Source: Gigantopelta aegis (Eukaryota; Mollusca; Gastropoda; Neomphalida; Peltospiridae). From it: a stretch of 64,000 nucleotides of DNA. The stretch covers positions 80,706,920 to 80,770,919 of the forward strand of contig NC_054702.1 of the NCBI RefSeq assembly GCF_016097555.1. Reading direction: 5' to 3'. Both the position numbers and the translations under genes were made by a program. Positions 2,057 through 54,259 of this stretch are shown here, piece after piece. The stretch's first letter is position 1; each line of letters begins with the position of its first letter. The notes beneath the pieces were generated by a model. It did not search any database and had not been told where the DNA came from. It saw only the letters and a program-made list of their open reading frames with translations.

Positions 2057-4002
2057 CTGGCAAAGTTCCTTCCACACCACTCACAGAAGAAAGGTTTTTC
2101 CCCAGTATGGGTTCTCTTGTGCATCTTGAGCTTGTCATAGCGAGCGAAGCGTTTCTCACACTGGTCACACGTGTAGGGTTTCTCTCCAGTGTGCACTCTC
2201 TTGTGCTCAGTCAACTTGTGCAGACGTCGGAATGCTTTCTGGCATGTCTCACACTTGTACGGCTTCTCCCCGGTATGACTGCGAATGTGCAGCTTCAGTT
2301 TGTATGCAGAGTTGAACTTTCGATCACAGAACGTACAAGGAATATGTGCAGGTCTTGGCACTGTCTTGTTGGGCCGACGAGGATTATAGTTGGGGCTTGT
2401 GTCATCATCTACAGCATCCACATACTGGTCCTTCAGGTATGCCATATTGAATTTCAAGAGGTCTAGATCACTGATGTTTGGGTCATTTGGTAGGCTCAGC
2501 TTAACTTTAGATTCTGGTGTCATATCTAATTTATGGACTTTCATTTTGTGAAGTTTTAATTTATCAGACCTGGCAAATTTCTTTTCACAGTGATCACAGG
2601 AATAAGGTTTTTCGCCCGAGTGTGTACGGTAATGAATCCTCAATTTGTACAGTTCCAGAAAGCCTTTACCGCAGCCAGTACACTCGTATAATTTTTTACC
2701 ATCTGGTAATATTGTGGGTTCTGGTGTAACAAAAAATCGGTCTACGCAAACTTTAGGCAATTCAGTCTTGAATGTAGTTCTCAGTCTTGCCTGTTGTAGT
2801 GGCTGTCTTTTCTTCAAACGAAGTAGTAACTTTTTCTTGAAATGCTGTCTGTTGCCTACTTTCATCTTTAACCGATTGGAAACTCGTACTGGTACTTTAT
2901 CTGCCGACAGAGGCTTTTGCAGAACATTTGTCCTTGGCCGTTTTACTTGCCATACTGCGGACCTTGTCACTCGATTGGATGTCTTCTGCAAGCCAAGCTT
3001 ATCGGCCAACTCCAGCTGCTCTGCATGTGACTTTCTGTGAAGCAGAAGTCCAGAAGATGTAGTGAATGCCTTTTTACATACATCGCATCGATACGGCTTT
3101 TGGCCAGTGTGAGAGCGCTTGTGAATTTTCAGACTTGCTGTGTGGCTGAAACTCTTCTCGCACACACTGCACTTGGTGGGTTCTGACGCATTCACATTTC
3201 CAGCATGCTGGCTGAGCAAGGTCAACAGACTCAAGGACGTCGTCCTGGAGATGAGCTTCTGGCACAGCTCACACTTGTAGACCTTGACGATTTTCAGTGC
3301 ACAGAGTGTCCACTTGCATTCAAGATGTTCATTAGGAACGCTAGCCTGGGACACTGTTGCATTTCTATTGTTGTGAGCACTGGTTGACAAATCACCAATG
3401 CTTGATGAATCGGTCTTAAAATCAGTATAATCTGGAGGCAATGGGTCATGCAGCCGACGCCTCTCGCAATCATTAGCAAATGCATTTTCTTGTATCTCTT
3501 TCGGTGCGACTGTGTCATCTGCTTCAACCTTAATAGAATCTGTCTTATGTTCAGTCATGTATGACGAACTGCTGTGACCGCCATATTTGATGTTGCTAGT
3601 GCTGGGAACACTGCCCATATCAGCTTCATTAGTAGGCCACACAGGCTGCCTTGTATCTTGCATGTATGTTGAACTATTTCTCGTCATGTCCTTATTGGCA
3701 AACATGTCCATCTCAGATCTGTTGGGAAACCATGGAGCATGCCTTTGAACATAATTTGGATCCATGTAGGGTATGCTGTTTGGCAGACTGTTGCCCATGC
3801 TGTGCTTGTTGGGGTAGTTATCCATGTTGGTTTCATTAGCTGACCAGGAGGCAGGTCTGTCGGTGTGGGTGGAGTCCATCCTAGACATGTCGGTGGGCCA
3901 GGGCCCTGGAGGATAGGCCACAGCACTACTGGACAAGCTGCTCAAACACACTGCAGCCTCATTCTCATCGCTTGATCTACCGGTGTGAGGCAGGTGCTCC
4001 AT
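2057..4002 (-). CDS. Gene A, large exon: C2H2 zinc-finger protein, N-terminal 648 residues
   Basis: This exon encodes a probable nuclear DNA-binding protein. The ATG at 4002 has an in-frame TAA 21 nt upstream. Residues 1-225 are low complexity, with four W-centred repeats. Residues about 228-265 are the family N-terminal module (CKWTL, then KIVKVYKCELC, then RTTSLSL). C2H2 fingers follow at about 278-298, 306-326, 441-461, 469-490, 556-576, 584-604 and 612-632, and an eighth starts at 640. A basic linker with a VTRS motif lies near 345 and a Lys/Arg-rich stretch at 380-405. The exon ends at 2057 with GCCAG followed by GTGAGA, a good donor inside finger 8 that leaves two bases of an Arg codon. 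Joining to the exon at 844 restores a normal finger. Fingers 4, 7 and 8 carry EGR-like R-x-D-[KH]-L helices. A lacks the C-terminal block of genes B-F in the part seen here. The true 5' UTR and the target are unknown. Confidence 0.88.
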
Positions 4003-4009
4003 GATGGAC

Positions 4010-4379
4010 CAAGTGTACAGTTAATGTATCTGACAATCAATTTATTCCATTTTCATGATTTTCAGAACACTACTGACCTGTGATGGATGCAAAAATGAAA
4101 TAATCATTAAAAAAACTAAAACATCAAGCAGTCTGTCACAGAAAGTGTTCAAAAAACATTAATGTTGAAATGGTCTTGAATCCAAACTTAAATGTAAATA
4201 CTTCTGATCTGAAAAACACAAAAACAAACATAATTTTACAAATTGTTAACCATAATTATTAAAATAGTTTTAGCATTGTACAAAATGTTCACTTTTGCAC
4301 TTGAATAAAACAAACTTCATAAAAAACAGAGACAAAAACTGCTTTATTACAAATGATTCTCCATTTGATGGCAACATTG
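4010..4379. other. Upstream of gene A, nothing recognised
   Basis: AT-rich non-coding sequence upstream of the gene A start. A possible acceptor (TTGATTGTCAG on the minus strand, about 30 nt before the ATG) suggests a 5' UTR intron. I cannot place a promoter. Confidence 0.4.
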
Positions 4380-4455
4380 TATGTTACATTTAGCTTTACG
4401 GCACTCAACACATTTTATTTACGGTTATATGGCATCAGACATATGGTTAAGGATG

Positions 4456-4529
<74 letters not shown>

Positions 4530-4752
4530 AGAGGAGAGAGAGAGACAGAAAGAGAGAGGGAACCTGATCTCGCCACTTCATGGGCTACTCTTTTTGATTA
4601 ACAGACAGATAGTACATACCATAGCCTTTGTTACACCAGTCACGGTGCACTGGTTTGAACAAGAAATAGCCTCATGAGGCCACCGACAGGGATCCATCCT
4701 AAACCGACCACGCATCAAGCGAGCGCTTTACCACTGGGCTACGTCCTGCTCC
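4380..4752 (-). repeat. tRNA-headed SINE (type B body) with (GA)n expansion
   Basis: The element reads from the tRNA-like head at 4752 (rc: ACGTAGCCCAGTGGTAAAGC) to an AACACATTTTATTTACGGTT-type tail near 4380. A (GA)n run plus poly-G at about 4461-4528 has expanded inside the body. It is old: many differences from other copies and no clear TSD. Confidence 0.75.
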
Positions 4753-5081
4753 ATAATTTTAAAGTTGGTGGATAGAACGTATAATTTTCTGAGATCACAG
4801 ATGGAAGGCAACAACTACTTGTGAATCCTCAATTGAGATTTATGAATACTAATAAATACTATATTCTGTTTTAAAAATAAAGGTATATAGGTCCTACAGG
4901 TATTTATATTCTGATGGAAAAAAAAAATAGGGTCATAATTATAAACAGAACACATTTTGTTACTTCTATGAAACTTGGCCCAGAATTTCAAAACTTGTTC
5001 TCAAAATGTATATTTAGTACATTTTTGACAATCTTCATGTTTCCATTAGTAACAAATGACCTTTTATATGTACCATCCCAT

Positions 5082-5156
5082 AGACAAGGATAGCATATTC
5101 CATAAACTGGGATCGATCCCAGACCAACCACTTTAACACTTGGCTACATTCCACCC
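5082..5156 (-). repeat. SINE head fragment
   Basis: GGGATCGATCCCAGACCAACC, then CACTTGGCTACATTCCACCC, matches the B-box and A-box side of the SINE heads seen elsewhere. The body is reduced to a remnant. Confidence 0.55.
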
Positions 5157-10953: not shown

Positions 10954-13803
10954 CTAAGCAACAGAGCCTTCTGGGACATCTGGGTTTATTACAACATATC
11001 TTGTGTGATCACCTTCATTGGATGTCAGAGTAAATGCTATTCTGTCATTATGTGCTGGAGATTCCTGCAATTCTAGAACATCACCAATTACTTCTTGATT
11101 AGCATTATCAGACGAACTCACGTCTTGTGCTTCGGTCACATAAGTAATTTGTCCATTGGGTGAAATAACCTCTTGTCCCTGGGTAATGAAGGTTATTTGC
11201 TCATCTGAAATTTGCTGTCCCTGGGTTATATAAGTCACTTGGTCATCTGGCAAAAGTCCATACTGTTCCTGAGTTAGATAAGTGACATGTTGATTTTCAT
11301 CATTTGCATCAGGTTCTTGACTTATAACAATATAGTGTGTTTCATTTGGTTCTTTCTTGATATGTGAAGTCGCCATTACTTCCTGCACAATTTGCGATGC
11401 AAAAAGCAACTCATTTACATCTGTAGCTGACACAGTTTGGACTCCAGTGGTGTCAAATACTGGCTTTCGGTCTTCAGTTTCACTAGGCTCTCCAGTTGCT
11501 ATGAACTCAAGACGATCCAGATGTCTGCTATCAGAAACCATCGTTGACATATCTTCCACATCTTCTTTCTCAGTTTTCACCACAAATGTACTGGACACAG
11601 GTACATGATGTTTCATTCTACGACGGATTGGCTTATCCTTGTTGCGTAGGTGTATTAGCTCGTGTCTTTTGAGGTGGGATGGTGTTCGAAACCAGGTTCC
11701 ACACAGGTCACATTGATATGGTTTTTCTCCGGTGTGAATCCGCTTGTGGACTCTGAGAGAACCCATTTCTGTGAGAACTGTACCACATATATCACAAGCG
11801 AATGCACCTTTCCTCTTTTGCAGACACCGGGCTCTGTGTTTCCGGAAATAAACATAGTCTTTAAAGTTTACACCACATTTATAGCACAGATAGCTCTTTT
11901 CTCCATTGTGTGAGCGGACATGAATATTAAGTCTCTTCTCACTGGTGAATTTCCGTCCACAGTGGCTCCAAGGGCAGACCAGTACCACCGTTTCCTTGAC
12001 TTTGTTATGGACATTTTCCATATGAACTGTCATTTGCCGGAGTTTGTAAAAAGTGGTAGGACACAAGTCACAAGAATACTTTTTTCTCAGTGGTGCATCT
12101 CCTACATTGTGTTTGATTCTACAATGCAGAAGATAATTGTTCTGAACTTTGAACCTCTTCTTGCATAACTCACAAGGATAAGGATAAACCTCACCATGCT
12201 CTTTGACATGGGCATTCAACTGGGGAGCAGAACAAAAACTCTTTTTGCATATGTGGCATATCTGAATTTGAGCACTGGCCATATGATTTTTCAAGTATTT
12301 TTCCATATGGAAACCTTTATCACAAGTAGAACACCTGTAATCTTTACTTGATCTGTGAAGCCGTAGGTGCTGTTTTAAGTAAGTTCGACAACGAAACTCC
12401 TTTGAACAACAATCACACCTGTAGGGTTTCTCTCCTGTGTGAATTCTGTTGTGAACATCCAGTTTTTCTCTGGAACTAAATGACAAGTCACAGTCGAGAC
12501 AATTAAAAGGTTGATCTCCACTATGAATTTGTTTATGTATCTCCATTTTGGACTTATTGTTAAACATTTTCTTGCAAATATCACACTGGTAGTCATTAAC
12601 CCTATTCTTTTTATGTTCCAACATGTGCGCTTTTAAAGTTTCTTTGGAAAAAAATGAATGTGGACAGAGGGAGCACTTGCGTACTTTTATTCGTTTTCTT
12701 TCATTCTTAAGCCTTGGCAAAAGTTTCTTATATGACTTTTTTGGATCTATATGCCGTGTATTGTACTTGTGATCTTTGCTTGTCACTTTAAATTCTTCAA
12801 AAGAAATATCACTGTCTTCAGAATGAAAGATTTCATCAGCATCTGATACTGAAGAATGGTGGGAGTCTTTATTTGGCTTGTCTTTCTTTGCTGCTGGTTC
12901 ATTAACAACAACTGTCTCAGACTTTGGCAAGCTATCCCCACCTTCATGCTTAATTTGGTCAGAGAGATCAACTAAAGCTTTAAGTTTTTTCGATGCAGGT
13001 AGGTCAGTTACAGATTCCGAATCACTGTCAACTTTATCTTGAGAACCTTGTAATGCAGGGTGTTGTGCATCACCCTTTGTTTTGACATCACTTGCCTCTT
13101 CTTCTACTTGTGAAATGGCACTGTCAGATAGACAGCCATTAGCTGTCTCAACAAAGGGAGACATATCTGGAAGACTAACACTTGTAGCTTGTTTTTGCAA
13201 CTGTTTTTGATTGGTTTCTGCATTAGGAAAACTAACACCTCCCTCTTTTTCCACTTCAGTGATTTTAGAATCACCTGAATATTCAACTTTAGTTTTTTTT
13301 GGAATGTTCTTATTTTTGTGCCGATTACCGCCTGTAACAATTACTTTTATCTTTTTAGGTTTTGTCAGCTGTGACAAAGATGCCTTGGATATTTTATCAA
13401 CATGCTTTGCTGATTTACTTCTGGTCACTGGAACAGACACTTCCTTGGCTTTCGTTTTCATAACTGTAAATGCTTTTTCTCCGCAACAGTGAATTTTCTT
13501 ATGAAGTTCAAGGCCAGAAAATGTGAAAAAATCACTCTCACACAGAACACATAAATAAGGCTTTGAATCTGTATGTACCCGCTTATGCACTGCAAGGCTG
13601 TACTTTTGGCCAAATGTTTTTTCACAAAACTTACACTTAAAACTTTCCCACTTCTTGAATTCACCTATCAGCTGTGCAAGAGAACTGCCTAGATTAAGAG
13701 TTTTTCTCTTGGTTATTTCATTACAACAAATCACACATTTATAGACTCTAACAATGTGGAGAGAAACAAGTGACCATTCACACTTCGAATGCTCATTTTT
13801 CAT
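10954..13803 (-). CDS. Gene B: 949-aa C2H2 zinc-finger protein with a V-T-Y repeat tail
   Basis: The frame runs from the ATG at 13803 (in-frame TGA 9 nt upstream) to a stop at 10954. The family N-terminal module is at 8-45 (CEWSL, HIVRVYKCVIC, RKTLNLG). Fingers 1-2 are at 57-77 and 85-105, and a VTRSKS motif is at 126-131. A long acidic, Ser-rich linker fills 170-345. About twelve fingers follow at 377-718, including one lacking its second His (491-507), a C-x4-C finger (CPWSHC, 610-632) and a C2HC finger (640-660). The tail holds four repeats of the form x-Q-[VI]-T-[YF]-x-T-[QE]-x-Q at about 838-890. It also has psi-K-x-E motifs (VKTE, IKKE) that fit SUMO attachment sites. It is the longest gene of the array. 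It is likely a nuclear regulator; its target is unknown. Confidence 0.9.
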   Translation of the reverse strand: MKNEHSKCEWSLVSLHIVRVYKCVICCNEITKRKTLNLGSSLAQLIGEFKKWESFKCKFCEKTFGQKYSLAVHKRVHTDSKPYLCVLCESDFFTFSGLELHKKIHCCGEKAFTVMKTKAKEVSVPVTRSKSAKHVDKISKASLSQLTKPKKIKVIVTGGNRHKNKNIPKKTKVEYSGDSKITEVEKEGGVSFPNAETNQKQLQKQATSVSLPDMSPFVETANGCLSDSAISQVEEEASDVKTKGDAQHPALQGSQDKVDSDSESVTDLPASKKLKALVDLSDQIKHEGGDSLPKSETVVVNEPAAKKDKPNKDSHHSSVSDADEIFHSEDSDISFEEFKVTSKDHKYNTRHIDPKKSYKKLLPRLKNERKRIKVRKCSLCPHSFFSKETLKAHMLEHKKNRVNDYQCDICKKMFNNKSKMEIHKQIHSGDQPFNCLDCDLSFSSREKLDVHNRIHTGEKPYRCDCCSKEFRCRTYLKQHLRLHRSSKDYRCSTCDKGFHMEKYLKNHMASAQIQICHICKKSFCSAPQLNAHVKEHGEVYPYPCELCKKRFKVQNNYLLHCRIKHNVGDAPLRKKYSCDLCPTTFYKLRQMTVHMENVHNKVKETVVLVCPWSHCGRKFTSEKRLNIHVRSHNGEKSYLCYKCGVNFKDYVYFRKHRARCLQKRKGAFACDICGTVLTEMGSLRVHKRIHTGEKPYQCDLCGTWFRTPSHLKRHELIHLRNKDKPIRRRMKHHVPVSSTFVVKTEKEDVEDMSTMVSDSRHLDRLEFIATGEPSETEDRKPVFDTTGVQTVSATDVNELLFASQIVQEVMATSHIKKEPNETHYIVISQEPDANDENQHVTYLTQEQYGLLPDDQVTYITQGQQISDEQITFITQGQEVISPNGQITYVTEAQDVSSSDNANQEVIGDVLELQESPAHNDRIAFTLTSNEGDHTRYVVINPDVPEGSVA

Positions 13804-14089
13804 AGCTGGTCAGGATGTGTGGGAGTTTTCTGAAACCTGGTTCATGCATCCACATAACAATGTTTGTTTTTTTATCCTGAATATAAAACTTGTGTTATAT
13901 TCCAAGCTAAGGTTAATATAAAATGCACAAATGACACATCATATGATTCTATCTTTTGTCTTGATTCCTGTCTGATGTTTTTCAATTCACAAAACTATGG
14001 CATACCATTCCTGTAAAAAATGAAGAATATACATGTTAGAAGGTCTGAATGCATCACAAGCATTAATATAGATTTATACATACATACAT

Positions 14090-23188: not shown

Positions 23189-24763
23189 TTAATTATGGAC
23201 AACTTCAAAAGAATTTAGTACAACTTCTTGTGCTATTTCTGCTCCCAGCATACTGGTACCTTCTAGAGTTTGTGAACCAGCTACTACATGCATGACTTCT
23301 CCAGCCAAAAGGGACACATTATTCTCACTAACATAATATACCACTGGTTCTCTCTTCACATTAATAAAAGTGTAAGTGGAGCTATCACCATCATTATCAC
23401 CATCATTGTCAACATCATCATAGCCATTAGTGTGTACCAAGTTAGCTACATCAAGTGTCTGTTCTGCAGATTCAGTCTTAATCAGATCTTGTGATGTTTT
23501 CTCCACTTTAACTTTCACGGGTGTCTGTGTGCCACAATTCTGAAAGACTGGTTTTGCATCCTTTCTTAAATGAATCTGTTTGTGGCGCTTCAAGTGGTGA
23601 TTGATTTTGAAACGCATACCACAGGTATCACACTGAAATGGTTTCTCTCCTGTGTGTGTGCGGGTGTGTGTTTTCAATGCTGAATAACCACCACATTCTT
23701 TACCGCACAACTTGCATGCAAGTTTGATAAAACGCTGTCGACACGTGCTTCTGTGTTTCTTGTACAGTATACAGTCGGTCAGCAACATTCCACACCTGCT
23801 ACAAAGATAAACCTTTTCTCCATTGTGTCTTTTAACATGCTGGTTAAGTCTACTCTGGCATGTGAATTTCTTGTTACAATGTTTCCACGGGCAAGGGATG
23901 GTCGGAATATGTTTTGTTTTATGAGTCTGGTTGTGAATTCTTAGTAGTTCTGAACCATCAAAGGATTCTGAACAGTGTGCACATTCGTATGCGACAGTTA
24001 TGCCTTTTCTAATATGTCTATCCACATGTTCCGTGTAATTTCTCAGGTATGGTGTTGTCTTAGTGCAATATGAACAAGAGTATTTTATGTCATGTTTCCT
24101 TTTATGACGTTTCAAGTCCAAAACTGTGCAAAAAAACTCTGAGCAAGTGTTGCACTTTTTAGATCTGCTGCTGTGAGCATGCAGATCGTTTTGGTTGTTA
24201 AAATATTTGTTGCAAATCGTACAATTTATATCCTCATTACATTCTGTTTTGCATTTTCCAGAAGGTGATTCCAGTTGTGCGAACTCTCTACTTACACTTT
24301 CATTGCTGGTTGCACAAATGTTACACAGAAACGTTTTTTTATTAGTATTAACGTCAAGACAAGTTTTCTTTTTAGAAGATGAGGGAGTCATTTTATTGCA
24401 CAGAACACACTTGGACAACATGGATTTTTTCATACTGTGCACACTTTTATGATTATCAAAATCTGTTTCAGTCACATGCTTAGCTGAACATGGAAGATGT
24501 TCCTTGCAACGATCTTTGGTCTCTTTACTTGCTTCAGCCTCATAGGCTTCATTTCCGTTAACTACACTGTCAACAACCACAGTCTTTCTATAGTAATCAT
24601 GCATATTACGATTACTAGTGGATGCCTTGTCGACAGATACTTGCTGCAACTCTGTTGATGGCTGATCTGCCATCTGCTTTTGTGTGTATGACCGTGTCCG
24701 CATCCTGGTACGTGTCGGTACCGAAACTATTATTTTCTTTTGTACAGGTGACCTTGTTTGCAT
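23189..24763 (-). CDS. Gene C: 524-aa C2H2 zinc-finger protein lacking the N-terminal module
   Basis: The frame runs from the ATG at 24763 to a stop at 23189. It starts directly with MQTRSPVQKK, which aligns with the TRS basic motif that lies internally in A, B, D and E. It therefore lacks the CWSL module and the first finger pair, or these sit in an upstream exon I cannot find. Cys pairs at 119-150 are degenerate. Fingers lie at about 181-200 (incomplete), 204-224, 230-250, 261-281, 291-313 (CPWKHC, C-x4-C), 321-341 (C2HC), 350-370 and 378-398. The tail has VKVEKT, IKTESA and VKREP (SUMO-type motifs), an Asp/Gly/Asn run near 449-460 encoded by a GAT-rich repeat, and a VKREPVVYYVSE segment like the family tail. 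It is closest to D and E in finger order. Confidence 0.87.
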   Translation of the reverse strand: MQTRSPVQKKIIVSVPTRTRMRTRSYTQKQMADQPSTELQQVSVDKASTSNRNMHDYYRKTVVVDSVVNGNEAYEAEASKETKDRCKEHLPCSAKHVTETDFDNHKSVHSMKKSMLSKCVLCNKMTPSSSKKKTCLDVNTNKKTFLCNICATSNESVSREFAQLESPSGKCKTECNEDINCTICNKYFNNQNDLHAHSSRSKKCNTCSEFFCTVLDLKRHKRKHDIKYSCSYCTKTTPYLRNYTEHVDRHIRKGITVAYECAHCSESFDGSELLRIHNQTHKTKHIPTIPCPWKHCNKKFTCQSRLNQHVKRHNGEKVYLCSRCGMLLTDCILYKKHRSTCRQRFIKLACKLCGKECGGYSALKTHTRTHTGEKPFQCDTCGMRFKINHHLKRHKQIHLRKDAKPVFQNCGTQTPVKVKVEKTSQDLIKTESAEQTLDVANLVHTNGYDDVDNDGDNDGDSSTYTFINVKREPVVYYVSENNVSLLAGEVMHVVAGSQTLEGTSMLGAEIAQEVVLNSFEVVHN

Positions 24764-25270
24764 CCTTATAAATGGGTTGCTGCTCTGTGCTCTAATTAAT
24801 TCACATACATATGTACACTAGGTTTACAGTCTTCCAATAAGGGATCAAACACAGCAATTATGGAAACTGATTTTTCACTGTGCTTTCTAGACCAGAAGAG
24901 GACTGGGTTCCACTTTGCAAGTGTGACTTAGCAAATATTTAACAAAGTTGAAACAACACTAATCATATCTTCATTGTGTTTATGTAGTTGGCATATTTAT
25001 CTTTGTTCAGTGCAGGCACACTTTCAGTATTTTGTGTTCTTTGATATTGTGATACTATTTTTCTTCTTCTTTTTATTACACCAATCTTCTTGTATAAGTA
25101 CAATCTTGAATCTGAAACAATACAAATTATATGGATTTAATAATGCAAATACACAGTAGAAAAATACCTAGAAATCCCCCAGACTAGTAATTCTGAGTAG
25201 ATGTGACTGTCAGGCCATTTAGCTATATAAATGTGTGAATTTATTTCACACAACAGACTGCCTAATCAAG
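24764..25270. other. Upstream of gene C, nothing recognised
   Basis: AT-rich sequence expected to hold the gene C 5' region. No CWSL-like exon is visible on the minus strand. Confidence 0.4.
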
Positions 25271-26000: not shown

Positions 26001-27466
26001 TAGCCCGAGTACTCCGACTGTAAGAGAGCTTGACGGACATTTGGACATAAATACGCTCTCATTACAGTCAGAGACCAAGCTATGTATATTTTGGCATTTC
26101 CCGACAACCAAAAAGTTGGCAAACATTTCCGCTCTAATATCACAATAATCCTATGTTCGATGTTAAATACTTTTACATCGATCATTTTCGAGTTAATTGA
26201 TTAAAAAAATCCACATATTAATCACTAATACACACACTACAAAAAGAAACCCGACAGCACCCACATTCACCTAAGCTTCGGCAAACTCCGGACAGCAGAA
26301 TTCTAAGTTCGCCAACCTATATCGTGATGTTGCGTCACATGATCGCCCACTCAGCCATTCCGTTAGCCCGAGTACTCTGACTGTAAGAGAGCTAGATGGA
26401 CATTTGGACATAAATACGCTCTCATTACAGTCAGAGACCAACCTATGTATTTTTTTGGCAATTCCTGACAACCAAAAAGTTGGCAAAGATTCCCGCTCTA
26501 ATACCACACCAATCCTATGTTTGAAGTCAAATACCTTTACATCGATCATTTTCAAGTTAACTGATAAAAAAAAAAATCCACATATTAATCACTAATATAC
26601 ATACTACAGAAAGAAATCCGACAGCACCCACATTCAGCTACGCTTTGTGACACTCCGTCGCCATAATTATAAAGCTTGGCGACCTATTTCGAGACGTAGA
26701 GCACGTGATCGCCCACTGGGCTATTCCACCTAGTAGACGGAATGGCTGAGTGGGCGATCATGTGACGCAACGTCACGATATAGGTCGGCAAACTTAGAAT
26801 TCTGCTGTCCGGAGTTTGCCAAAGCGTAGCTGAATATGGGTGCTGTCGGATTTCTTTCTGTAGTAGGTATATTAGTGATTAATATGTGGATTTTTTTTTA
26901 TCAGTTAACTCGAAAATGATCGATGTAAAGGTATTTGATGTCAAACATAGGATTGGTGTGGTATTAGAGCGGGAATCTTTGCCAACTTTTTGGTTGTCAG
27001 GAATTGCCAAAAAAATACATAGGTTGGTCTCTGACTGTAATGAGAGCGTATTTATGTCCAAATGTCCGTCTAACTCTCTTACAGTCAGAGTACTCGGGCT
27101 ACCATTCCGTCTACTAGGCAGAATCACCCAGTGGGCGATCACATGATCTACGTCACCGAGCTTTGTAATTCTTGTGACGGAGTGTCACGAAGCGTAGCTG
27201 AATGTGGGTGCTGTCGGATTTGTATTAGTGATTAATATGTGGATTTTTTTTTAATCAGTTAACTCGAAAATGATCGATGTAAAAAATATTTAACGTCAAA
27301 CATAGGATTGTTGTGATATTAGAGTGGAAATCTTTGCCAACTTTTTTGTTGTCGGGAATTGCCCCAAAAATACATAGCTTGGTCTCGGACTGTAATGAGA
27401 GCGTATTTATGTCCAAATGTCCGTCTAGATAGCTCTCTTACAGTCAGAGTACTCGGGCTATTAGTA
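26001..27466. mobile_element. Foldback (long-TIR) element, outer copy, TSD TTACATAAC
   Basis: The left arm 26001-26354 begins TAGCCCGAGTACTCCGACTG and the right arm 27111-27460 ends with its inverted equivalent. TTACATAAC occurs at 25992-26000 and again at 27467-27475, with six extra bases after the right arm. The arms carry a shared core (AAATGATCGATGTAAA, CAAACATAGGATTG) but no ORF. Nine-bp duplications and long arms fit a MULE-like foldback. Confidence 0.75.
26364..27101. mobile_element. Foldback element nested in the outer one, TSD CCATTCCGT
   Basis: It starts TAGCCCGAGTACTCTGACTG and ends with the exact inverse. CCATTCCGT flanks it on both sides (26355-26363 and 27102-27110). Each arm is about 370 bp and together they make nearly the whole element. 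A subterminal hairpin (GACTGTAAGAGAGC against GCTCTCATTACAGTC) sits in each arm. Confidence 0.82.
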
Positions 27467-32450: not shown

Positions 32451-34943
32451 TTAGGAATTAAAGAGACAAGTTGCGTCTTCCAGTTCCTGGGCAACATTTG
32501 ATGTTGCACACATCAGTTCGGTCTGCAGGTGTACAGGTATCTCCTCTGTTGATATGCACGTAGTGCCATTTTCCTGCTTGACAATATACGTCACCACCTG
32601 TTCATTCCCAATATCAACAGACGTAGTATACTCTGTGTAGTTTTGGGCTTGTGTTGCATTGGAATAACACAATGCCGATTCCACAGATACAGTTTCTGGT
32701 ATGGTTTCGCCTTCAAAGGGAGGCATTTCTCCTTTTCGTACATGAATCCGCTTGTGTCGCCTGAGGTGGGAACTGTTGTTAAATCGAGCACCGCAGATTT
32801 CGCACTGACATGGTTTTTCTCCCTTGTGAGACAAAATATGCCTATGTAAAGCGGTGTACCCACTTAGGACCTTTCCACATATGGCACAATCGTGTGTATT
32901 TATTTTCTGGTAACACGCTCTTCTATGTTTAAGATAAAACACACAGTCAGTGAAGCGCATGCCACATCTATGACAGAGGTACTGAGTTTCACCATTGTGT
33001 CTTTTGAGATGCAAATTTAGTCTAGTCTGACTGGTTAGCATTTTGCCACAGTGAGGCAATGGACACCTAACGCACTTGTCACGTTTTACAGAGTGTTTTT
33101 TTCTGTGTACACGTAGCAGGTCATAACTGTCAAAAGATTCTGAACAAATTGGACATGGGAATCTTATTGGCATACCCTTTCGAGAATGTCTTTGCATATG
33201 GACAAAGAAATTATAGTTCGACTTGAATGTTTTTTTGCAGAACTGGCAATCTTTCCCATCTGTTTTAGACACAGAAAAAGCTTCCACATGATTTTTTTGC
33301 TTATGAACATTTAATGCAGAAATGGTACAGAATAACTGTGAACATGTGTCACATTTCTGCCTTTTTTTACTGTGATCCCAATAACCTTCACGACTCATGA
33401 ACTGTTTTTCACAATTCTTACAGCTAATTTGTTTATCAGTATTTGACTGATGTGTGGCTAAATGTCTGTTAAAAGTGTTATGATACTTAAATTCCTTTGC
33501 GCATGTGCCACAACGGAAGGGTTTTTCTCCAGTATGCACTCTCATGTGGATTTTCAGACAGGCCTTCATTCTGAAGCTTTTGTTGCAGATATTACAAGTG
33601 AAGGGTTTTTCTCCGGTGTGAAGTCGGAGATGATCTTTCAGTTTAGAAGAGTCATTGCACATCTTCTTACAAAGATCACACTGGAACAACTTTGACTGTT
33701 TTCCTGGGGTTTTAAGGTCATATTCAGATGGTGATTTACTGACCTCATCTGTTTTTAGGACGTGCTTAACGCATGAATTTGAACACTTTTGTACACTGCC
33801 AATAACTTTCTGTGTCTTAGATTTCTTTACCTTGTCATTAGACTTCATTTCTGGAGTACTTTGACATCTCTTCATATTTCTGTAACTCTTTGTATTGGTC
33901 GACTGCTTTTCCTTCTTCACAAGTGACCTTGTCATTATTCTGTGACCCACAAAAATATGCTGTGACAATTCTTTTTGTACACATGATTTTGTTTTCCATC
34001 TTGTGCAGTGCATGTCTTTATTATCATTAATTTTGTTCTTTTCCAGCATTTTAACTAATTTTGAACTACATGTTTCTACCGACTTCTGGTGTTTTTCTTT
34101 TACTGAGACATTATGGGAGAAATCTGAAGGGCCATAACATGCATTATCAAGATCATCATTGTAACTAGTGCTGGCCTCACATTCGATTTGTGATGAAGTT
34201 TTGTTATTCTCACTAACTTCTGGTTCATTTTTGAAAATAAAAGAACTGTTATCACCAGTGATCAATAATGTTTTCTTAACCACAGTTCTTTCATTTTGAA
34301 TATCACTTTCATTTCTTCTCATCCAGGCCAAGGAACTATTGGTATTAATATCTTCTTGTTTGACATTTTGTGCTGGGGATAGAACTGCATTTGAATTTCT
34401 TAGCAGCACATCAAATGTTTCAGCTGAATTTTTATCTCCTGTAGAATTCTGAGTAATGACCAACACTCTTTTGGACTCGTCACCTATTTCTACTTTAAGA
34501 AACTGACTTTCAAGGTTTTGAGATTTAAGTCTGTTACAAATCTGACTTTCTTCGTTCTGGTTTTGATGTTCAGTGTGATCAGAAACTGTAATATTATTAT
34601 GACCAAGATTTTTAGTCTTAAACTGTCTCATTTCATGACCTGCCTTGTGAATCACTAAGCCAGCCTGTGTGACAAACCCTCTGTTACATGTAACACACTT
34701 GTAGGGTTTTGCATCCGAGTGTCTCCGTCTGTGCACACGAAGACTGGCTTTTTGTCTAAAAGATTTTTCACAACCTCTACATCTAAAGCAACCCACTTGA
34801 TTGCCAGCCACACTCTGAGTAACAGCACTTGAGCAACCGAGACTATTGGTCCTCTGTACATGTTTATGGCACACACCACATTTGTAGATCTTAACAATTC
34901 TGATGCACATCAGTGACCACCTACATGTATGTCTTACACCCAT
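32451..34943 (-). CDS. Gene D: 830-aa C2H2 zinc-finger protein
   Basis: The frame runs from the ATG at 34943 to a TAA at 32451. The N-terminal module is at 7-38 (CRWSL, RIVKIYKCGVC, RTNSLG). Fingers 1-2 are at 55-75 and 83-103. A long linker holds KRVLVITQNSTGD (158-170) and IMTRSLVKK (336-344). Fingers then lie at about 422-442, 450-470, 478-498, 508-530 (degenerate), 531-552, 566-586, 597-617, 627-649 (CPLPHC, C-x4-C), 657-677 (C2HC), 686-706 and 714-734. After the last finger come RKGEMPPFE and a tail with TTSVDIGNEQVVTYIVKQE and ATSNVAQELE. It is closest to E, with nearly the same fingers in the same order. A splice acceptor lies 11 nt before the ATG. It is probably nuclear; its target is unknown. 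Confidence 0.9.
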   Translation of the reverse strand: MGVRHTCRWSLMCIRIVKIYKCGVCHKHVQRTNSLGCSSAVTQSVAGNQVGCFRCRGCEKSFRQKASLRVHRRRHSDAKPYKCVTCNRGFVTQAGLVIHKAGHEMRQFKTKNLGHNNITVSDHTEHQNQNEESQICNRLKSQNLESQFLKVEIGDESKRVLVITQNSTGDKNSAETFDVLLRNSNAVLSPAQNVKQEDINTNSSLAWMRRNESDIQNERTVVKKTLLITGDNSSFIFKNEPEVSENNKTSSQIECEASTSYNDDLDNACYGPSDFSHNVSVKEKHQKSVETCSSKLVKMLEKNKINDNKDMHCTRWKTKSCVQKELSQHIFVGHRIMTRSLVKKEKQSTNTKSYRNMKRCQSTPEMKSNDKVKKSKTQKVIGSVQKCSNSCVKHVLKTDEVSKSPSEYDLKTPGKQSKLFQCDLCKKMCNDSSKLKDHLRLHTGEKPFTCNICNKSFRMKACLKIHMRVHTGEKPFRCGTCAKEFKYHNTFNRHLATHQSNTDKQISCKNCEKQFMSREGYWDHSKKRQKCDTCSQLFCTISALNVHKQKNHVEAFSVSKTDGKDCQFCKKTFKSNYNFFVHMQRHSRKGMPIRFPCPICSESFDSYDLLRVHRKKHSVKRDKCVRCPLPHCGKMLTSQTRLNLHLKRHNGETQYLCHRCGMRFTDCVFYLKHRRACYQKINTHDCAICGKVLSGYTALHRHILSHKGEKPCQCEICGARFNNSSHLRRHKRIHVRKGEMPPFEGETIPETVSVESALCYSNATQAQNYTEYTTSVDIGNEQVVTYIVKQENGTTCISTEEIPVHLQTELMCATSNVAQELEDATCLFNS

Positions 34944-34956
34944 TGTTATGGAACCT
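34944..34956 (-). promoter_or_regulatory. 3' splice site 11 nt before the gene D ATG
   Basis: On the minus strand GTTTATTTTGCAG precedes 11 nt (GTTCCATAACA) and then the ATG. Genes E and F have an acceptor at the same distance. Confidence 0.65.
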
Positions 34957-35148
34957 GCAAAATAAACAATTCAAATTTAGCATGTGTATACAGAAAGCAT
35001 TATATATTGAGTACAGCTGTTATTTGCCAAATACATGTATCAACTGAAATTGGCAAACATATTTCATAATACAGGCCATATGTTTCAAGGTGTACAATAC
35101 ACTATTCTTGCTATAGACTATAAATGTAGGTGTCCTAGCAACCACTTG

Positions 35149-41364: not shown

Positions 41365-43542
41365 CTACTCCAGTGCTTTAGCAACATTTTCTGTTGCACA
41401 CAGTATTTCTGTCTTCAGTTCTACTTGCTCGGTTTCCTTATCAATGAAATACGCCACTACCTGTTCATTCCCAATTTCAACAGTATATTCAGCGAAATCT
41501 TGGCTGTGCGTTTCATCAGGATAACAAAAGATCGATTCAATTTGTTGGGATCCTCGAGCGGTGGCATCATCGAATGGCGGCATTTCTCCTTTCCTAACGT
41601 GAATCCTCTTGTGTCGCTTAAGATGCGAACTGTTGTTGAATCGAGCACCACATATCTCGCACTGGCATGGTTTTTCACCTTTGTGAGACAAAAGGTGCTT
41701 CTGCAAAGACGAGTGACCACTGAGGATTTTACTACATATGGGACAGGCATATTTGGTGATTCTCTGGTAACATGCTCTCCTGTGTTTAAGGTAAAACACA
41801 CAGTCGGTGAAATTCATGCCACATCTGTGACAAAGGTACTGAGTGTCACCATGTCTTTTAAGATGCGAGTCAAGCCTGGTCTGACTTGTTAACTTTTTGC
41901 CACAGTGAGACCATGGGCAGGTAACGCATTTATCACGTTTAACCGAGTGTGATTTTCTATGACTGCGTAAAGCGTCATAGGTATCAAACGATTCCGAACA
42001 TATTGGACATGGAAATTTTATTGGCATACCCTTTCGAGCATGTTTCTGCATATGGACGAAGTAGGTATAGTTTGAGTTGAATGTTTTAGTGCAAAACTGA
42101 CAGTACTTTCCATCTGCCGCACTCACAGAAAATGAATCTACATGGTTTTTGTGTTTGTGAATGTTGAGCGCAGAAAAGGAACAGAACAACTGTGCACATA
42201 TGTCACATTTACGAAGTTTTTGCTTGTGATCCCACAGGCTTTCACGAGTCATGAACAGTCTGTCGCAAATCTTACACTTAACTTGTTTCTCCACATCGAT
42301 CTGGTGTGTGGCTAAATGCTTGTTGAATGTGTTTTGATACCTAAAGTCTTTTGAACACGTGCTGCAATGGTAAGGCTTCTCTCCAGTATGCACCCTCATG
42401 TGAACATTCAGACAGGCATTCATTCTGAAGCTTTTGTTGCAGATATTGCAAACAAAGGGTTTTTCACCAGTGTGAAGGCGACGATGACTTCTCAGCTGTG
42501 AAGAGTCGTAGCACATCTTACTACAAACATCACACTGGTATATCCTTGACGTCTTGGCCGAGTCTGCCTGGTTCTTCGAGACTCGTTTTAAACGTGCTTT
42601 CTTGACCTTGCCTTCCTTCTTGACCTCATCTTCCTGACTGTCACTGAATTCATCTTCAACTGCAGATGCATCCTCTTTCTTACTGTTGTTCACAATTGTT
42701 TTAGTTCTCGATTTCACTACCTTGTGTTTTCTACCACGTCTGTTATTGGTCGATGGAGGTTTCCTTTTCCCTAACGACCTGGTCACCATCCTTTTCTCCA
42801 AGTCTACAGTATGTGACATAACTTTGGACTGATTGTTCACCACTGACAAACCATCAGTACTATCTTCATCATCCACGTCATCATCACAGCTTATTTGCAG
42901 AGAAGATTCTGTTTTGGTAGTATCTTTTAGTTGCTTCTTAAGCCATCTGCGTTTGGGGGTGTTTTGTTTGGTATCTGCCTTACTGTTTTTACTCGGGCTG
43001 TTGGAATCTTTCACCATTTCAGTTTTTTTATTCTTCACATGTGTGTGAGCAAATTTATTATTAGATGAATCTTTTCTAGCTGGACAGATTTTATTTGATT
43101 TTGTTGTATTCTTGCCAAATAATTCTGTTGAACTTTCTCGTCCTGCAGAATCATGAGTAATGACCAGCACTCGTCTGGACTTGTGACTTCTTTGTCCTCT
43201 TAGAAACCGACTTACAACGTTTTTCTGTTCAGTCTTAACCTGCCTTACTTCATGACTTGTTTTGTGGATGACTAAACCAGCTTGTGTGATGAACCTTTTG
43301 TCACATTTAACACATTTGTAGGGTTTTGCATTAGAGTGTCTCCGTCTGTGCACAAGAAGACTGGCTTTCTGCCCAAATGACTTTTTGCATTTGTCACAAG
43401 TAAAATATCCCAACCGATGCAGAGTCAAACCTAAATTGAGTGTTGTCCTCTGTGAATGTTTACGATACACACTGTATTTGTAAATCTTGACAATTTTTAT
43501 ACTTCTCAGTGACCACTTGCACTTTCTGTGTCTTGCAGGCAT
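41365..43542 (-). CDS. Gene E: 725-aa C2H2 zinc-finger protein, paralogue of D
   Basis: I start at the ATG at 43542; the open frame extends three codons further only to a TTG and then meets a splice acceptor. The N-terminal module (CKWSL, KIVKIY, RTTLNLG) is at about 8-38, but its C-x-x-C is replaced by Tyr-x-x-Tyr (YKYSVY). Fingers 1-2 are at about 49-69 and 77-97. The linker has RRVLVITHDSAGRES, KDSNSPSK, an acidic DDDVDDED run and MVTRSLGKRK. Eleven finger-like units follow at about 337-650 in the same order as D, including CPWSHC (C-x4-C) and a C2HC unit. The tail has VEIGNEQVVAYFIDKE and ATENVAKALE at the stop. E and D are the closest pair in the array. Confidence 0.9.
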   Translation of the reverse strand: MPARHRKCKWSLRSIKIVKIYKYSVYRKHSQRTTLNLGLTLHRLGYFTCDKCKKSFGQKASLLVHRRRHSNAKPYKCVKCDKRFITQAGLVIHKTSHEVRQVKTEQKNVVSRFLRGQRSHKSRRVLVITHDSAGRESSTELFGKNTTKSNKICPARKDSSNNKFAHTHVKNKKTEMVKDSNSPSKNSKADTKQNTPKRRWLKKQLKDTTKTESSLQISCDDDVDDEDSTDGLSVVNNQSKVMSHTVDLEKRMVTRSLGKRKPPSTNNRRGRKHKVVKSRTKTIVNNSKKEDASAVEDEFSDSQEDEVKKEGKVKKARLKRVSKNQADSAKTSRIYQCDVCSKMCYDSSQLRSHRRLHTGEKPFVCNICNKSFRMNACLNVHMRVHTGEKPYHCSTCSKDFRYQNTFNKHLATHQIDVEKQVKCKICDRLFMTRESLWDHKQKLRKCDICAQLFCSFSALNIHKHKNHVDSFSVSAADGKYCQFCTKTFNSNYTYFVHMQKHARKGMPIKFPCPICSESFDTYDALRSHRKSHSVKRDKCVTCPWSHCGKKLTSQTRLDSHLKRHGDTQYLCHRCGMNFTDCVFYLKHRRACYQRITKYACPICSKILSGHSSLQKHLLSHKGEKPCQCEICGARFNNSSHLKRHKRIHVRKGEMPPFDDATARGSQQIESIFCYPDETHSQDFAEYTVEIGNEQVVAYFIDKETEQVELKTEILCATENVAKALE

Positions 43543-43555
43543 GCTTGTCAAACCT
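43543..43555 (-). promoter_or_regulatory. 3' splice site 11 nt before the gene E ATG
   Basis: TTATTTATATTTCAG on the minus strand, then GTTTGACAAGC and the ATG. This is the same 11-nt spacing as D and F, which also argues against the TTG three codons upstream as start. Confidence 0.65.
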
Positions 43556-44187
43556 GAAATATAAATAAAATTCTAATTAATATTTTGAAACCATTTTATG
43601 TTGTAGATAGGGATATAATTGTACGAGTGAAGTGGGTGTATGTATTTGCACTTAAGCTATAGCCCGTTTGTGGCAAAAGGGAACCAATGAAATGGCATAT
43701 AACTATATACTTGTATAAAACATACTACATGTATTATGTTTTAAGCCCGTAACAACTCACATAACATTTTTTGCAAAAATATTTATGAAAATAAAAATGT
43801 TTCTTCACAAATTATCATCAAATTGCATAAATTAACTCATTTCTAATATAGGGATGAAGACAAAATACTGGATCAGCCAAAGTTTGCAGTTTCATCTGAA
43901 GTAATCAATAATGCAGTTCACAGAGAATAAAGGCAGAATTACGGGTGATTCAACTTGGCTGTTTCATCAGTTGCCTTCATCCCTGTGTTGTATTACTTTT
44001 AATATGTTTCGTTATGAGTTTTGATGTTACTCATTACATGTTAATTCATTGGTTCTCTCTTCACAAAATGGACTGTGGCTATCATCTTAACAAATTAAAG
44101 GGAAATCCATTAAGTATTTTTTTGTGTTGCTGTTATTAACAGAAATAAACAAGCATTCGGAGAGTACTGTACATGTCACCTACAGGG
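43556..44187. other. Upstream of gene E, nothing recognised
   Basis: AT-rich intron or 5' flank. Two short plus-strand ORFs lack any motif. Confidence 0.4.
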
Positions 44188-47500: not shown

Positions 47501-47502
47501 TG

Positions 47503-51638: not shown

Positions 51639-51895
51639 TTTGTTTTGCTTAACGACACCAATACTATAGATCATACAGATTAATTGACTAATGTGTGAAA
51701 CATTTGGTCATTGTGACACGCAGTCTTCAGAACCAGCTACATTCTTCTATTAGTAGCAAGGAATCTTTTATATGCAGTTTCCCCATAACGAGACGTGTAT
51801 CAAAGGTCGTGGTGTGTACTGTACTATCCGTGGGAAAATGCATATACAAGATCCCTTGCCCCTATTGGACAAGTGTAGCCGGTTTAAATATTATT
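51639..51895. repeat. Two opposed SINE fragments
   Basis: A minus-strand type A piece (TTTGTTTTGCTTAACGACAC to CTTTTATATGCA) ends near 51778 and a plus-strand piece (ATCAAAGGTCGTGGTGTGTA to AGATCCCTTGC) runs to 51895. Confidence 0.65.
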
Positions 51896-52315
51896 TCGGT
51901 TAATAACAGTAAGATGATATACATGTGAGTAAATTCTGTAGTCATAAAGTGGGAAGGGGGATATATCCTGGACTCCCCAGTCTATGGGCGTGTTAATGTC
52001 AACTGACTGTATCTTAAACCACATCTACTTGTTATCCAACATAGGATTCCTTGCAACATGGTCAACAAAGATAGGAAACCCACTTCAGTTAATATATAGA
52101 TATACAAATAGACAACATGTGTTTTGTACAATGTCCTCCCCAAAATATTCTTTAGTAAGTAAACTGTCTTTAGGCCCATGAACTATTTTATTTTTTCATA
52201 ATTAACCTGTTAAAAATAGGTTACGCAACATTAAATTTGCTTCAGTGAAAGGTAATTATCGTTCTCGCAATTTTCAGAGGGCTGTATAAAACAAACAAAA
52301 GAATACAAAACAGCA

Positions 52316-52376
52316 CTACACTACACTACACTACACTATATATAGACTATAGTATACTACACTACACTATACTGAG
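52316..52376. repeat. (ACACT)n pentanucleotide repeat
   Basis: CACTACACTACACTACACTA followed by a degenerate TATAGTATACTACACTACAC segment. Confidence 0.85.
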
Positions 52377-52542
52377 CACTGCCAAGAGAAGAGAACAAAT
52401 ACGAAGTACATTTCCTCAGTTGGAAGCTGGGATGATACCACTGGCGAAGGAACTGGTGGACGATATCATCTGGGTTAGAGCGGTGGAAACAATTTATCTG
52501 CAAAACCTCTACAAGCTGACAATATTACATTTTATAAGTTGT

Positions 52543-52548
52543 TTTATT
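52543..52548 (-). terminator. Candidate polyadenylation signal of gene F
   Basis: AATAAA on the minus strand about 230 bp downstream of the gene F stop. Confidence 0.4.
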
Positions 52549-52777
52549 CCGTCCGCGTTCAGTAAAAATATCTGAACTGTGGGTCCCATGTGTATTCTCT
52601 CTTCAATTATTTGCATGATATAAAAATGCACCAATTTCTAAATACACAAATCTGAAAAAACCAAAAGGGACAATTTTCAATTTCTGCCTTGAATTCAACC
52701 TATTAGTCACCATGCAAACTGTTTAATATGACAAGTAAGAACTACTGTTACACCAGATTTCTAATTACTGAACATGC

Positions 52778-54259
52778 CTACTGCATTTCCTTAGACACAT
52801 TTGCTGTTGCACGCAACACTTCAGCCTGCTGTTCAAATGCCACGCGTTTCTTTTGCTCCTCTATACAGTATGCCACCACCTCTTCATTCCCAATTTGAAC
52901 AGGTGTTGTATAATCGGTGTAATCTTCGAGTAGCACGTCATTCTGCATGTCTGATACGGACTGCATTGTCATGGTTGATGTCTTAGAATCAGCTTCAGGG
53001 GCTGACATTTCTCCTTTTCTGATGTGAATACGCTTATGGCGCGTCAGATGTGAATTATTGTTAAATCGCGCACCACAGATCTCACACTGGGATGGTTTTT
53101 CTCCCTTGTGCATCAGCGTGTGCTTCTGTAATGCAGAATATCCACTCAACGCCTTTCCACACCGAGTGCAATCGTAAGTTTTAAATCGCTGCAGACACAC
53201 ACCCTTGTGTTTATGATAAAAGACACAGTCGGTGAAGTTCTTGCCACACCTGTCACAGAGGTAAAATGTTTCTCCATTGTGCCTTTTCAGATGCGAGTTA
53301 AGTCTGGTCTGACTCGTCAGTTTCTTGCCACAGTGAGCCCATGGACAAACAGCCCTGATTGGGCGCTTCTTTGTATGCATCTTCCTATGATTGCATAACA
53401 GTTTGAAGCTGTCAAATGATTCTGAACAGTCTACACAGTCGAAGGTAAGGGATGTGATGTCAGACTTCACATCACAAGGTAAACCGGATGATCCTGTAAT
53501 GCTTTCTTTACCACTGCTTCCTGATGTGACCAGAATAGGTCTTGACTTGCCATCCATGTCTACGTTGACTAAATAATTAATAACTTTCTTCGGAGATGTA
53601 CAATTATCAACCATAGTACCCTTTACATCTTCATCCTGTACACCTGGATTTCCGGGTGCACTAGCCAGAACAAGACTGCCTTTAATTGGTAGGAGACTGG
53701 TAGCGTTCAGAAGACTATATGTTCCTTTGGATTTAGGTGAATTAGAGTCTTTTATTTTTGAATGTCTACTTGGAATCTTTGGTACGGACAATTCCTGTTT
53801 GATGCTACCAGTCTCTTGTTGAGATATTGCCATTTTTATCAACTGTTTCAAACATGTAGAAGCTGGAAAGGCCTTAACATCATTTAGTCCACTGTCATCC
53901 ATATTTTGTTTTTCAATTTTCTTTTTACTAGCGCACACTTGGTGAGATGCATTTCTATGCAATTCTAAGCCGGACCGTGTGATAAATCTTTTATTACACT
54001 GGGTGCATATGTAGGGTTTCGATTTTGAATGTTTTCTCCTATGAACATGAAGACTGGGTTTTTGACTAAAGGATCTTTGGCATCTCTTACATTGAAAATG
54101 TTCCCATTCCTTACAACCAGCCAGATCCCGCATGGCAGCACTCGCTAAGCTCAGAGTTGTGATTCTCTGTGTGTGCTTTTGGCACACATCACACTCATAG
54201 GTCTTGATAATTTTGACAGCTGACAAGGACCACAGACGCTTAGCATTTCTTGTCAACAT
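52778..54259 (-). CDS. Gene F: 493-aa C2H2 zinc-finger protein, short paralogue
   Basis: The frame runs from the ATG at 54259 to a TAG at 52778. The N-terminal module is at 8-40 (RLWSL without the leading Cys, KIIKTYECDVC, RITTLSL). Fingers 1-2 are at 57-77 and 85-106. The linker has IKQELS (SUMO-type), KDSNSPKS as in E, and SRPILVTSGSSGKES like the D/E VLVIT motif. It then goes straight to the C-terminal block: fingers at about 275-295, 305-327 (CPWAHC, C-x4-C), 335-355 (C2HC), 364-384 and 392-412. It therefore lacks the six central finger units of D and E and has no TRS motif. The tail has TTPVQIGNEEVVAYCIEEQ and ATANVSKEMQ at the stop. The open frame shows no break, so the short form looks functional. 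Confidence 0.9.
   Translation of the reverse strand: MLTRNAKRLWSLSAVKIIKTYECDVCQKHTQRITTLSLASAAMRDLAGCKEWEHFQCKRCQRSFSQKPSLHVHRRKHSKSKPYICTQCNKRFITRSGLELHRNASHQVCASKKKIEKQNMDDSGLNDVKAFPASTCLKQLIKMAISQQETGSIKQELSVPKIPSRHSKIKDSNSPKSKGTYSLLNATSLLPIKGSLVLASAPGNPGVQDEDVKGTMVDNCTSPKKVINYLVNVDMDGKSRPILVTSGSSGKESITGSSGLPCDVKSDITSLTFDCVDCSESFDSFKLLCNHRKMHTKKRPIRAVCPWAHCGKKLTSQTRLNSHLKRHNGETFYLCDRCGKNFTDCVFYHKHKGVCLQRFKTYDCTRCGKALSGYSALQKHTLMHKGEKPSQCEICGARFNNNSHLTRHKRIHIRKGEMSAPEADSKTSTMTMQSVSDMQNDVLLEDYTDYTTPVQIGNEEVVAYCIEEQKKRVAFEQQAEVLRATANVSKEMQ

What the first reader, a model, noticed from the sequence alone, without database searches (positions are those of the whole stretch)
2057..54259. Tandem zinc-finger family with an unrecognised N-terminal module
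Five of the six genes place the same 35-residue segment before their first finger pair. The pattern is C-x-W-[ST]-L, then [KRH]-I-[VI]-[KR]-x-Y-[KE]-C-x-x-C, then R-x-[TN]-x-L. It has one C-x-x-C but no matching His pair, so it is not an ordinary C2H2 finger. I do not recognise it as KRAB, SCAN, BTB, ZAD or THAP. A shared N-terminal module on an expanding same-strand finger array is the layout of lineage-specific repressor families such as KRAB or ZAD proteins. This could be a molluscan counterpart. Gene positions: A 3210-3320, B 13665-13785, D 34830-34925, E 43430-43525, F 54140-54240.
Basis: partly seen in the sequence, partly recalled or inferred. Interest (0 to 1): 0.78.

Follow-up and report, generated by a model that had tools for sequence, protein, structure and literature searches.

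The report
His-less finger module, one gene cluster
A run of neighbouring zinc-finger genes in a probably molluscan genome shares a short, conserved front-end piece made of a new 17-residue segment fused to a zinc finger that has lost its histidines; it looks like a local invention of one small gene cluster, not a new counterpart of the large KRAB or ZAD families.

Summary
The segment is real. It lies in 5 of the 6 window genes and in 4 more genes of the same cluster outside the window: 9 of 10 long finger-array frames over about 120 kb. Three module-only searches of the 1.15 Gb genome found no convincing copy elsewhere. The last half is not foreign: it aligns with the front of a C2H2 finger whose two histidines are gone. 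The first half (H-x2-C-x-W-[ST]-L-x3-[KR]-[IV]-[VI]-K-x-Y) matches nothing in Pfam or PDB sequences and is about as conserved between paralogues as working fingers. Between close paralogues the module is under purifying selection. An upstream H-C pair and the C-x2-C pair are each lost as pairs (F/G lack the first, E the second), hinting at, but not proving, a rewired His-Cys-Cys-Cys zinc site. The KRAB/ZAD analogy is weak: one small cluster, module in the same frame as the fingers, no faster change at base-contact residues in young pairs. Likely role: a protein-facing cap on the conserved finger 1-2 unit. Other species and structure could not be tested.

The parts
3205..3339 (-). module of gene A: head with H-x2-C-x-W plus His-less finger; all four candidate ligands present
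13669..13803 (-). module of gene B; all four candidate ligands present
34812..34943 (-). module of gene D; all four candidate ligands present (H-x1-C)
43411..43542 (-). module of gene E; H and first C kept, both cysteines of C-x2-C are Tyr, one residue missing in the tail
54125..54259 (-). module of gene F; C-x2-C kept, upstream H and C replaced by N and R
3025..3321 (-). gene A: most of the module plus fingers 1-2, the conserved unit (extent of the match to the D unit)
13489..13785 (-). gene B: most of the module plus fingers 1-2
34632..34931 (-). gene D: most of the module plus fingers 1-2 (the query)
43249..43524 (-). gene E: most of the module plus fingers 1-2
53951..54235 (-). gene F: most of the module plus fingers 1-2
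2053..4020 (-). gene A open frame, 655 aa; long leader before the module; the frame ends at a donor-like ccag|gtgaga, further finger frames lie at lower coordinates
10954..13809 (-). gene B open frame, 951 aa
23189..24817 (-). gene C open frame, 542 aa: lacks the module and fingers 1-2; looks like a 5'-truncated copy
32451..34970 (-). gene D open frame, 839 aa; acceptor-like ..ttttgcag just before the ATG
41365..43572 (-). gene E open frame, 735 aa; acceptor-like ..atttcag before the ATG
52778..54298 (-). gene F open frame, 506 aa; acceptor-like ..ttttgcag before the ATG

Best explanation
The module arose once, in the ancestor of one C2H2 gene cluster, from the first finger of an array. That finger lost its two histidines and gained, or kept, a new upstream head (H-x2-C-x-W-[ST]-L-x3-K-I-V-K-x-Y). 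Tandem duplication then copied the whole unit of head, His-less finger, finger 1 and finger 2. Shown: the anatomy, the confinement to the cluster at tblastn sensitivity, the finger-like character of the tail, and purifying selection in the two close pairs. The reasons are that fingers 1-2 carry nearly the same small or hydrophobic residues at the base-contact positions in the six genes that have both fingers intact, and that the head is conserved although it does not look like part of a DNA-reading finger.
For: Nine of the ten long finger-array frames of the cluster carry it. Module-only genome searches: 8 of 13, 2 of 6 and 9 of 12 matches fall in the cluster; every other match has E of 0.49 or worse. 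The nine outside matches were all looked at: four are ordinary fingers, five show neither finger nor module; the three were not looked at. Tail = finger: profile-profile probability 94% over columns 21-38; the 31 best PDB matches to the module profile are all C2H2 finger proteins, each over the tail, best single-finger i-Evalue 0.0029; permuting the tail columns lowers the score against 280 fingers of this genome in 100 of 100 trials, while permuting the head reaches the real score in 14 of 100. Selection, dN/dS module / fingers / rest: F-G 0.05 / 0.28 / 0.44, D-E 0.19 / 0.16 / 0.54. Mean pairwise identity in six genes: head 0.48, tail 0.42, finger 1 0.52, finger 2 0.45, the stretch after finger 2 0.21; with L1 and L2 added: head 0.47, tail 0.36. 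Contact residues of fingers 1-2: QASV/TAGI (D, E), QPSV/TSGL (F, G), QYSV/TSGL (B), HASI/TSGL (A).
Against: No structure, expression or binding data. Selection counts in the module are small (F-G: 1 nonsynonymous and 5 synonymous changes). In older pairs the module is less clearly kept (B-D module 0.52, rest 0.67; F-D module 0.31, fingers 0.06, rest 0.43), and synonymous sites are near saturation. Single-finger matches of the tail are only borderline (i-Evalue 0.003-0.006). L1 and L2 have the module without a finger pair directly behind it, so the four-part unit is not universal.
Confidence: 0.55

Rival explanations
1. A rewired zinc site: the upstream H-x2-C and the C-x2-C left over from the old finger together bind one zinc (His-Cys-Cys-Cys), so the finger was re-ligated from its N-terminal side after losing its histidines. 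E and F/G later lost one pair each.
For: H-x(1,3)-C-x-W is present in exactly the 7 of 9 genes that keep the C of C-x-W; F and G lack both residues, E lacks both cysteines of the other pair. Losses are pairwise in two separate lineages (tree). All four candidate ligands are present in 6 of 9 genes.
Against: Only two independent losses, so pairwise loss could be chance (one in three each if positions were equal). Three genes that should not bind zinc this way keep the rest of the module. Spacing varies: H-x1-C in D, H-x3-C and C-x4-C in L2. No structure could be predicted.
Confidence: 0.3
2. A lineage-specific effector like KRAB, ZAD or FiNZ: the module recruits a co-repressor and the fingers target transposable elements.
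For: Position before the finger array, tandem genes (9 of 10 on one strand), no Pfam match. FiNZ shows that short unmatched N-terminal sequences can define such families (PMC10547256, passages seen).
Against: Nine copies found, in one cluster only; same open frame as the fingers; base-contact residues about as conserved as the rest in the young pairs (D-E 34 of 48 contact identities against 120 of 156 other; F-G 25 of 28 against 78 of 91).
Confidence: 0.12
3. Plain decay: a dead first finger carried along by duplication, with no function of its own.
For: His pair gone in all copies; one ligand pair or the other gone in three; degenerate fingers do occur in zinc-finger arrays (PMC2865497, passages seen).
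Against: The head, which does not look like part of a standard finger, is about as conserved as working fingers; the module has the lowest dN/dS of the F-G pair and is close to the fingers in D-E.
Confidence: 0.15
4. The module still helps to bind DNA, as a first non-standard finger packed against finger 1.
For: Linker from module to finger 1 is of similar length (17-19 residues in 5 of 6 genes, 12 in E); basic residues in the head.
Against: A 17-19 residue linker is far longer than the TGEKP-type linker between adjacent fingers (recalled) and poorly conserved (0.27).
Confidence: 0.15

Closest known systems
C2H2 (Kruppel-type) zinc finger, Pfam PF00096
   Same: Tail of the module keeps [YF]-x-C-x2-C (C-x4-C in L2, lost in E) and the spacing to the core hydrophobic and to the Leu or Tyr (exact in 8 of 9 copies by eye), and aligns with fingers
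   Different: Both histidines missing in all 9 copies; hydrophobic Phe position is I, V, T or S; extra conserved head in front
FiNZ domain of cyprinid fish zinc-finger proteins (PMC10547256; abstract and passages seen)
   Same: Short N-terminal sequence with no similarity to known domains, confined to one lineage's zinc-finger genes
   Different: FiNZ: 28 aa, Glu-rich, own exon, about 700 zebrafish genes. Here: 38-45 aa, Cys/Trp/basic, same open frame as the fingers, 9 genes found
KRAB
   Same: N-terminal to tandem C2H2 arrays in gene clusters (recalled)
   Different: No Pfam KRAB match
ZAD
   Same: N-terminal, possible four-ligand zinc site in front of fingers (ZAD facts recalled)
   Different: No Pfam ZAD match; ZAD has two C-x2-C pairs in a longer domain (recalled), here H-x2-C and C-x2-C within about 24 residues

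Membership tests
C2H2 zinc finger (module tail) | C-x2-C with aromatic two residues before it, hydrophobic at +4 and Leu at +10 | tested here: met
   met in most copies: Cys pair lost in E, Thr or Ser at +4 in E, F, G, L1, L2, Tyr for Leu in L1, L2
C2H2 zinc finger (module tail) | H-x3-5-H after the helix | tested here: not met
   no His pair in any of 9 copies; no Pfam match for the 5 window modules
KRAB, ZAD, SCAN, BTB, THAP | match to the Pfam model of the domain | tested here: not met
   6 window ORFs, E up to 1; 5 window modules, E up to 10; the 4 outside copies were not scanned
FiNZ | 28-aa Glu-rich sequence on its own exon | tested here: not met
   module is Cys/Trp/Lys-rich and in the finger frame; definition from PMC10547256 passages; the FiNZ sequence itself was not compared
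Lineage-specific repressor family (KRAB-like behaviour) | large, genome-wide, rapidly diversifying set with variable base-contact residues | tested here: not met
   9 genes found, in one cluster; contact residues not faster in young pairs
Lineage-specific repressor family (KRAB-like behaviour) | transcriptional repression through a co-repressor | not testable with these tools
   needs an assay
His-Cys-Cys-Cys zinc site | four ligands close enough to hold one zinc | tested here: inconclusive
   co-occurrence and pairwise loss; structure job failed and the tool was then off

The most novel reading that the evidence does not exclude
A C2H2 finger that lost its histidines was re-ligated from the other side by a new H-x2-C head, giving a new zinc-site layout (H-x2-C-x14-C-x2-C). 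It became a protein-contact domain private to one gene cluster, in which some paralogues kept only one or the other half of the site and may work as non-zinc or paired versions.
Probability: 0.2. Interest if true: 0.6.

Novelty: new variant of a known kind. Interest (0 to 1): 0.36.

Why it matters
If the rewired site is real, it is a case in progress of how a DNA-reading finger turns into something else: the four candidate ligands can be followed through nine paralogues, with two opposite half-losses. If not, it is still a small, well-bounded example of a lineage-private module in a zinc-finger cluster, and a caution against reading such modules as new KRAB counterparts without a genome-wide count.

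Tried and rejected
Considered and rejected: KRAB, ZAD, SCAN, BTB, THAP (no Pfam match); a genome-wide family; a KRAB-like arms race in the fingers; a hidden module upstream of gene C (tblastn over 7.7 kb, nothing better than E 0.10). A zinc-ribbon reading of H-x2-C/C-x2-C was considered; the 60 listed PDB matches of 107 hold C2H2 fingers and, from E 1.0 on, mostly antibody light chains, no ribbon.

Led nowhere: scans of viral and prokaryote collections with a three-module alignment (0 relatives among 64 and 44 pattern matches; these collections hold hardly any animal DNA, so this says nothing about animals); literature searches for such a module in molluscs or lophotrochozoans (listings only, apart from the outline and passages seen of three papers); an abalone egg-lysin query to narrow the taxon.

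Limits: the genome search is tblastn-like. With the consensus query the two most distant members (L2, L1) score E 0.38 and 0.78, level with outside matches (0.49, 0.78), so members as distant as these elsewhere could be missed. In one search only 150 of 2246 candidates were scored and not all of the 243 matches were listed; 11 listed ones start at query residue 8-18 (two of them inside genes B and D), and of the other nine I looked at three (L032, L037, L041: ordinary fingers). The identity figures rest on hand-set segments, with G left out and L2's two extra residues dropped.
Full report
What is there. The window is C4:80706920-80770919 of a 1.15 Gb genome. Six C2H2 genes lie on the minus strand. 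Fetching 60 kb to the left and 40 kb to the right shows that the cluster runs from 80657746 to 80778426. It holds ten long frames with finger arrays; nine of the ten carry the module: A, B, D, E, F, and outside the window G (80776870-80778426), L1 (80666110-80668353), L2 (80674830-80676674) and H (80657746-80659107, the only one on the + strand). Shorter finger frames without the module also lie there: one behind H, three near 80687654-80688309 and three between 80704962 and 80707777; some are probably further exons of H and A, and whether any is a gene of its own was not settled.

Is it more than chance? The core W-[ST]-L-x3-[KRHQ]-[IV]-x3-[YF] occurs 9 times in six frames of 164 kb, against a mean of 0.08 and a maximum of 1 in 50 block shuffles. 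The genes are related by descent, so similarity alone is no proof of function. Selection is the better test (NG86). F against G: module 1 nonsynonymous and 5 synonymous changes (dN/dS 0.05), fingers 0.28, rest 0.44. D against E: module 0.19, fingers 0.16, rest 0.54. For older pairs synonymous sites are near saturation and the picture is mixed: B-D module 0.52, rest 0.67, fingers not computable; F-D module 0.31, fingers 0.06, rest 0.43; A-B module and fingers not computable. Mean pairwise identity over six genes (A, B, D, E, F, H) is 0.48 for the head, 0.42 for the tail, 0.52 and 0.45 for fingers 1 and 2, 0.27 for the linker behind the module and 0.21 for the 120 residues after finger 2; with L1 and L2 added the head stays at 0.47 and the tail falls to 0.36 (G, nearly identical to F in the module, left out).

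How far it spreads. A search of the whole genome with module plus fingers 1-2 of D gave 243 matches, not all listed. The seven that start at query residue 1-4 are all in the cluster; of the other listed ones 11 start at residue 8-18 and the rest at 25 or later. Of those 11, two lie inside B and D and three of the other nine were looked at: ordinary fingers. A lax pattern for the core found nothing in the non-cluster loci then held. Module-only queries are the cleaner test: A gave 13 matches, 8 in the cluster, the other five at E 1.6 or worse; L2 gave 6, 2 in the cluster (itself and H, the latter at E 0.55), the other four at E 3.5 or worse; a consensus gave 12, nine in the cluster (all nine genes), the other three at E 0.49 or worse. 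The nine outside matches were all looked at: four are ordinary fingers, five show neither a finger nor the module, one of these with C-T-W-N-L but no C-x2-C behind it. The three could not be cut out. Members as distant as L1 or L2 could be missed at this sensitivity.

What it is made of. The tail, from Y-x-C on, aligns with C2H2 fingers. Profile-profile comparison with 16 fingers of these genes gives 94% probability over columns 21-38. The 31 best PDB matches of the module profile are all C2H2 finger proteins, always over the tail; the summed E-value for the best (Aart) is 9.8e-6, and the best single finger (ZBTB20) has an i-Evalue of 0.0029, which is borderline; antibody light chains follow from E 1.0. 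Permuting the tail columns lowered the mean score against 280 fingers of this genome, those of the cluster included, in 100 of 100 trials; permuting the head columns did not do so reliably (14 of 100 reached the real score). So the tail is a finger without its histidines, and the head is not finger-like by this test. No Pfam family matches the five window modules at E up to 10. The six whole window ORFs match over the curated cut-offs only C2H2-type finger models.

Candidate ligands. Seven of nine copies have H-x(1,3)-C-x-W, and these are exactly the copies that keep that cysteine; F and G have neither residue. Eight of nine have C-x(2,4)-C; E has lost both cysteines. Six of nine have all four. 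F and G share an ancestor (99/97 support), so there are two loss events, each of a whole pair. This fits one zinc site built of two pairs, but two events are few. It also means that three copies probably cannot bind zinc this way and yet keep the rest, so zinc would not be essential in them.

How it most likely works. The conserved unit in seven genes is head, His-less finger, finger 1, finger 2. Fingers 1 and 2 show nearly the same base-contact residues in A, B, D, E, F and G (QASV, QPSV, QYSV or HASI, then TSGL or TAGI); H has HGSI and a finger 2 that lacks the standard His pair. Residues of this kind give little base specificity (recalled), and they do not vary as one expects of fingers that read different sites. 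The inference is a shared structured cap that meets a partner or a second copy, with DNA reading left to the later fingers. This was not tested.

Against a KRAB counterpart. The module lies in the same open frame as fingers in all nine genes, with acceptor-like sites right before the ATG in D, E and F, whereas FiNZ has its own exon (PMC10547256, passages). Only one cluster was found. Contact residues are about as conserved as the rest in young pairs: D-E 34 of 48 against 120 of 156, F-G 25 of 28 against 78 of 91. In older pairs they are often more divergent than the rest, for example C-D 10 of 28 against 53 of 91, B-D 17 of 48 against 70 of 154, L1-L2 10 of 40 against 55 of 130; others show little difference (D-F 20 of 28 against 62 of 89). 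That leaves room for slow change of specificity in the later fingers.

Taxon. The haemocyanin domain PF14830, molluscan by recall, is found over its cut-off, five matches on two contigs whose size was not seen; none of the 14 control genomes has it, but at least one of these is a microbe (Methanocaldococcus), so that control says little. This supports a mollusc, with the reservation that stray contigs can be contaminants.

Literature. The listings (the best 8 to 20 of each search) show no title or abstract start that describes this module; the library holds only open-licence PMC papers. A cephalopod C2H2 survey (PMC12513265; outline and passages) has no occurrence of 'N-terminal' in its main text.

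Not done. No collection of animal genomes or proteomes other than the window's own genome was at hand, so presence in other species is open.

Noticed in passing
window 23189-24817 (-): Gene C lacks both the module and fingers 1-2; its first Met stretch (MQTRSPVQKK) resembles, by eye, the middle of the D and E linkers (MTRSLVKK, MVTRSLGKR). It looks like a 5'-truncated duplicate; no remnant was found upstream.
   Followed up: partly
window about 3600-3950 (-): The leader of gene A holds about four loose repeats around W-x-x-[NT] and a following Met between its first Met and the module, seen by eye; other genes were not checked for it.
   Followed up: no
window 26001-27428: Dense nested inverted repeats, the longest arms 26364-26574 and 26891-27101, 211 nt, 98% complementary: perhaps a foldback or miniature transposon.
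   Followed up: partly
G000:C4:80664655-80665491 (+) and 80677806-80678711 (-), left of the window: Two long frames that read like Tc1/mariner transposase (named from recall) lie among the module genes.
   Followed up: no
window 2053-2090 (-) and below: Gene A's frame ends at a donor-like ccag|gtgaga; finger frames at 592-858 and left of the window (80704962-80706657) may be its continuation.
   Followed up: partly
G000:C2783 and C5121: Haemocyanin domains (PF14830), five matches over the cut-off.
   Followed up: no
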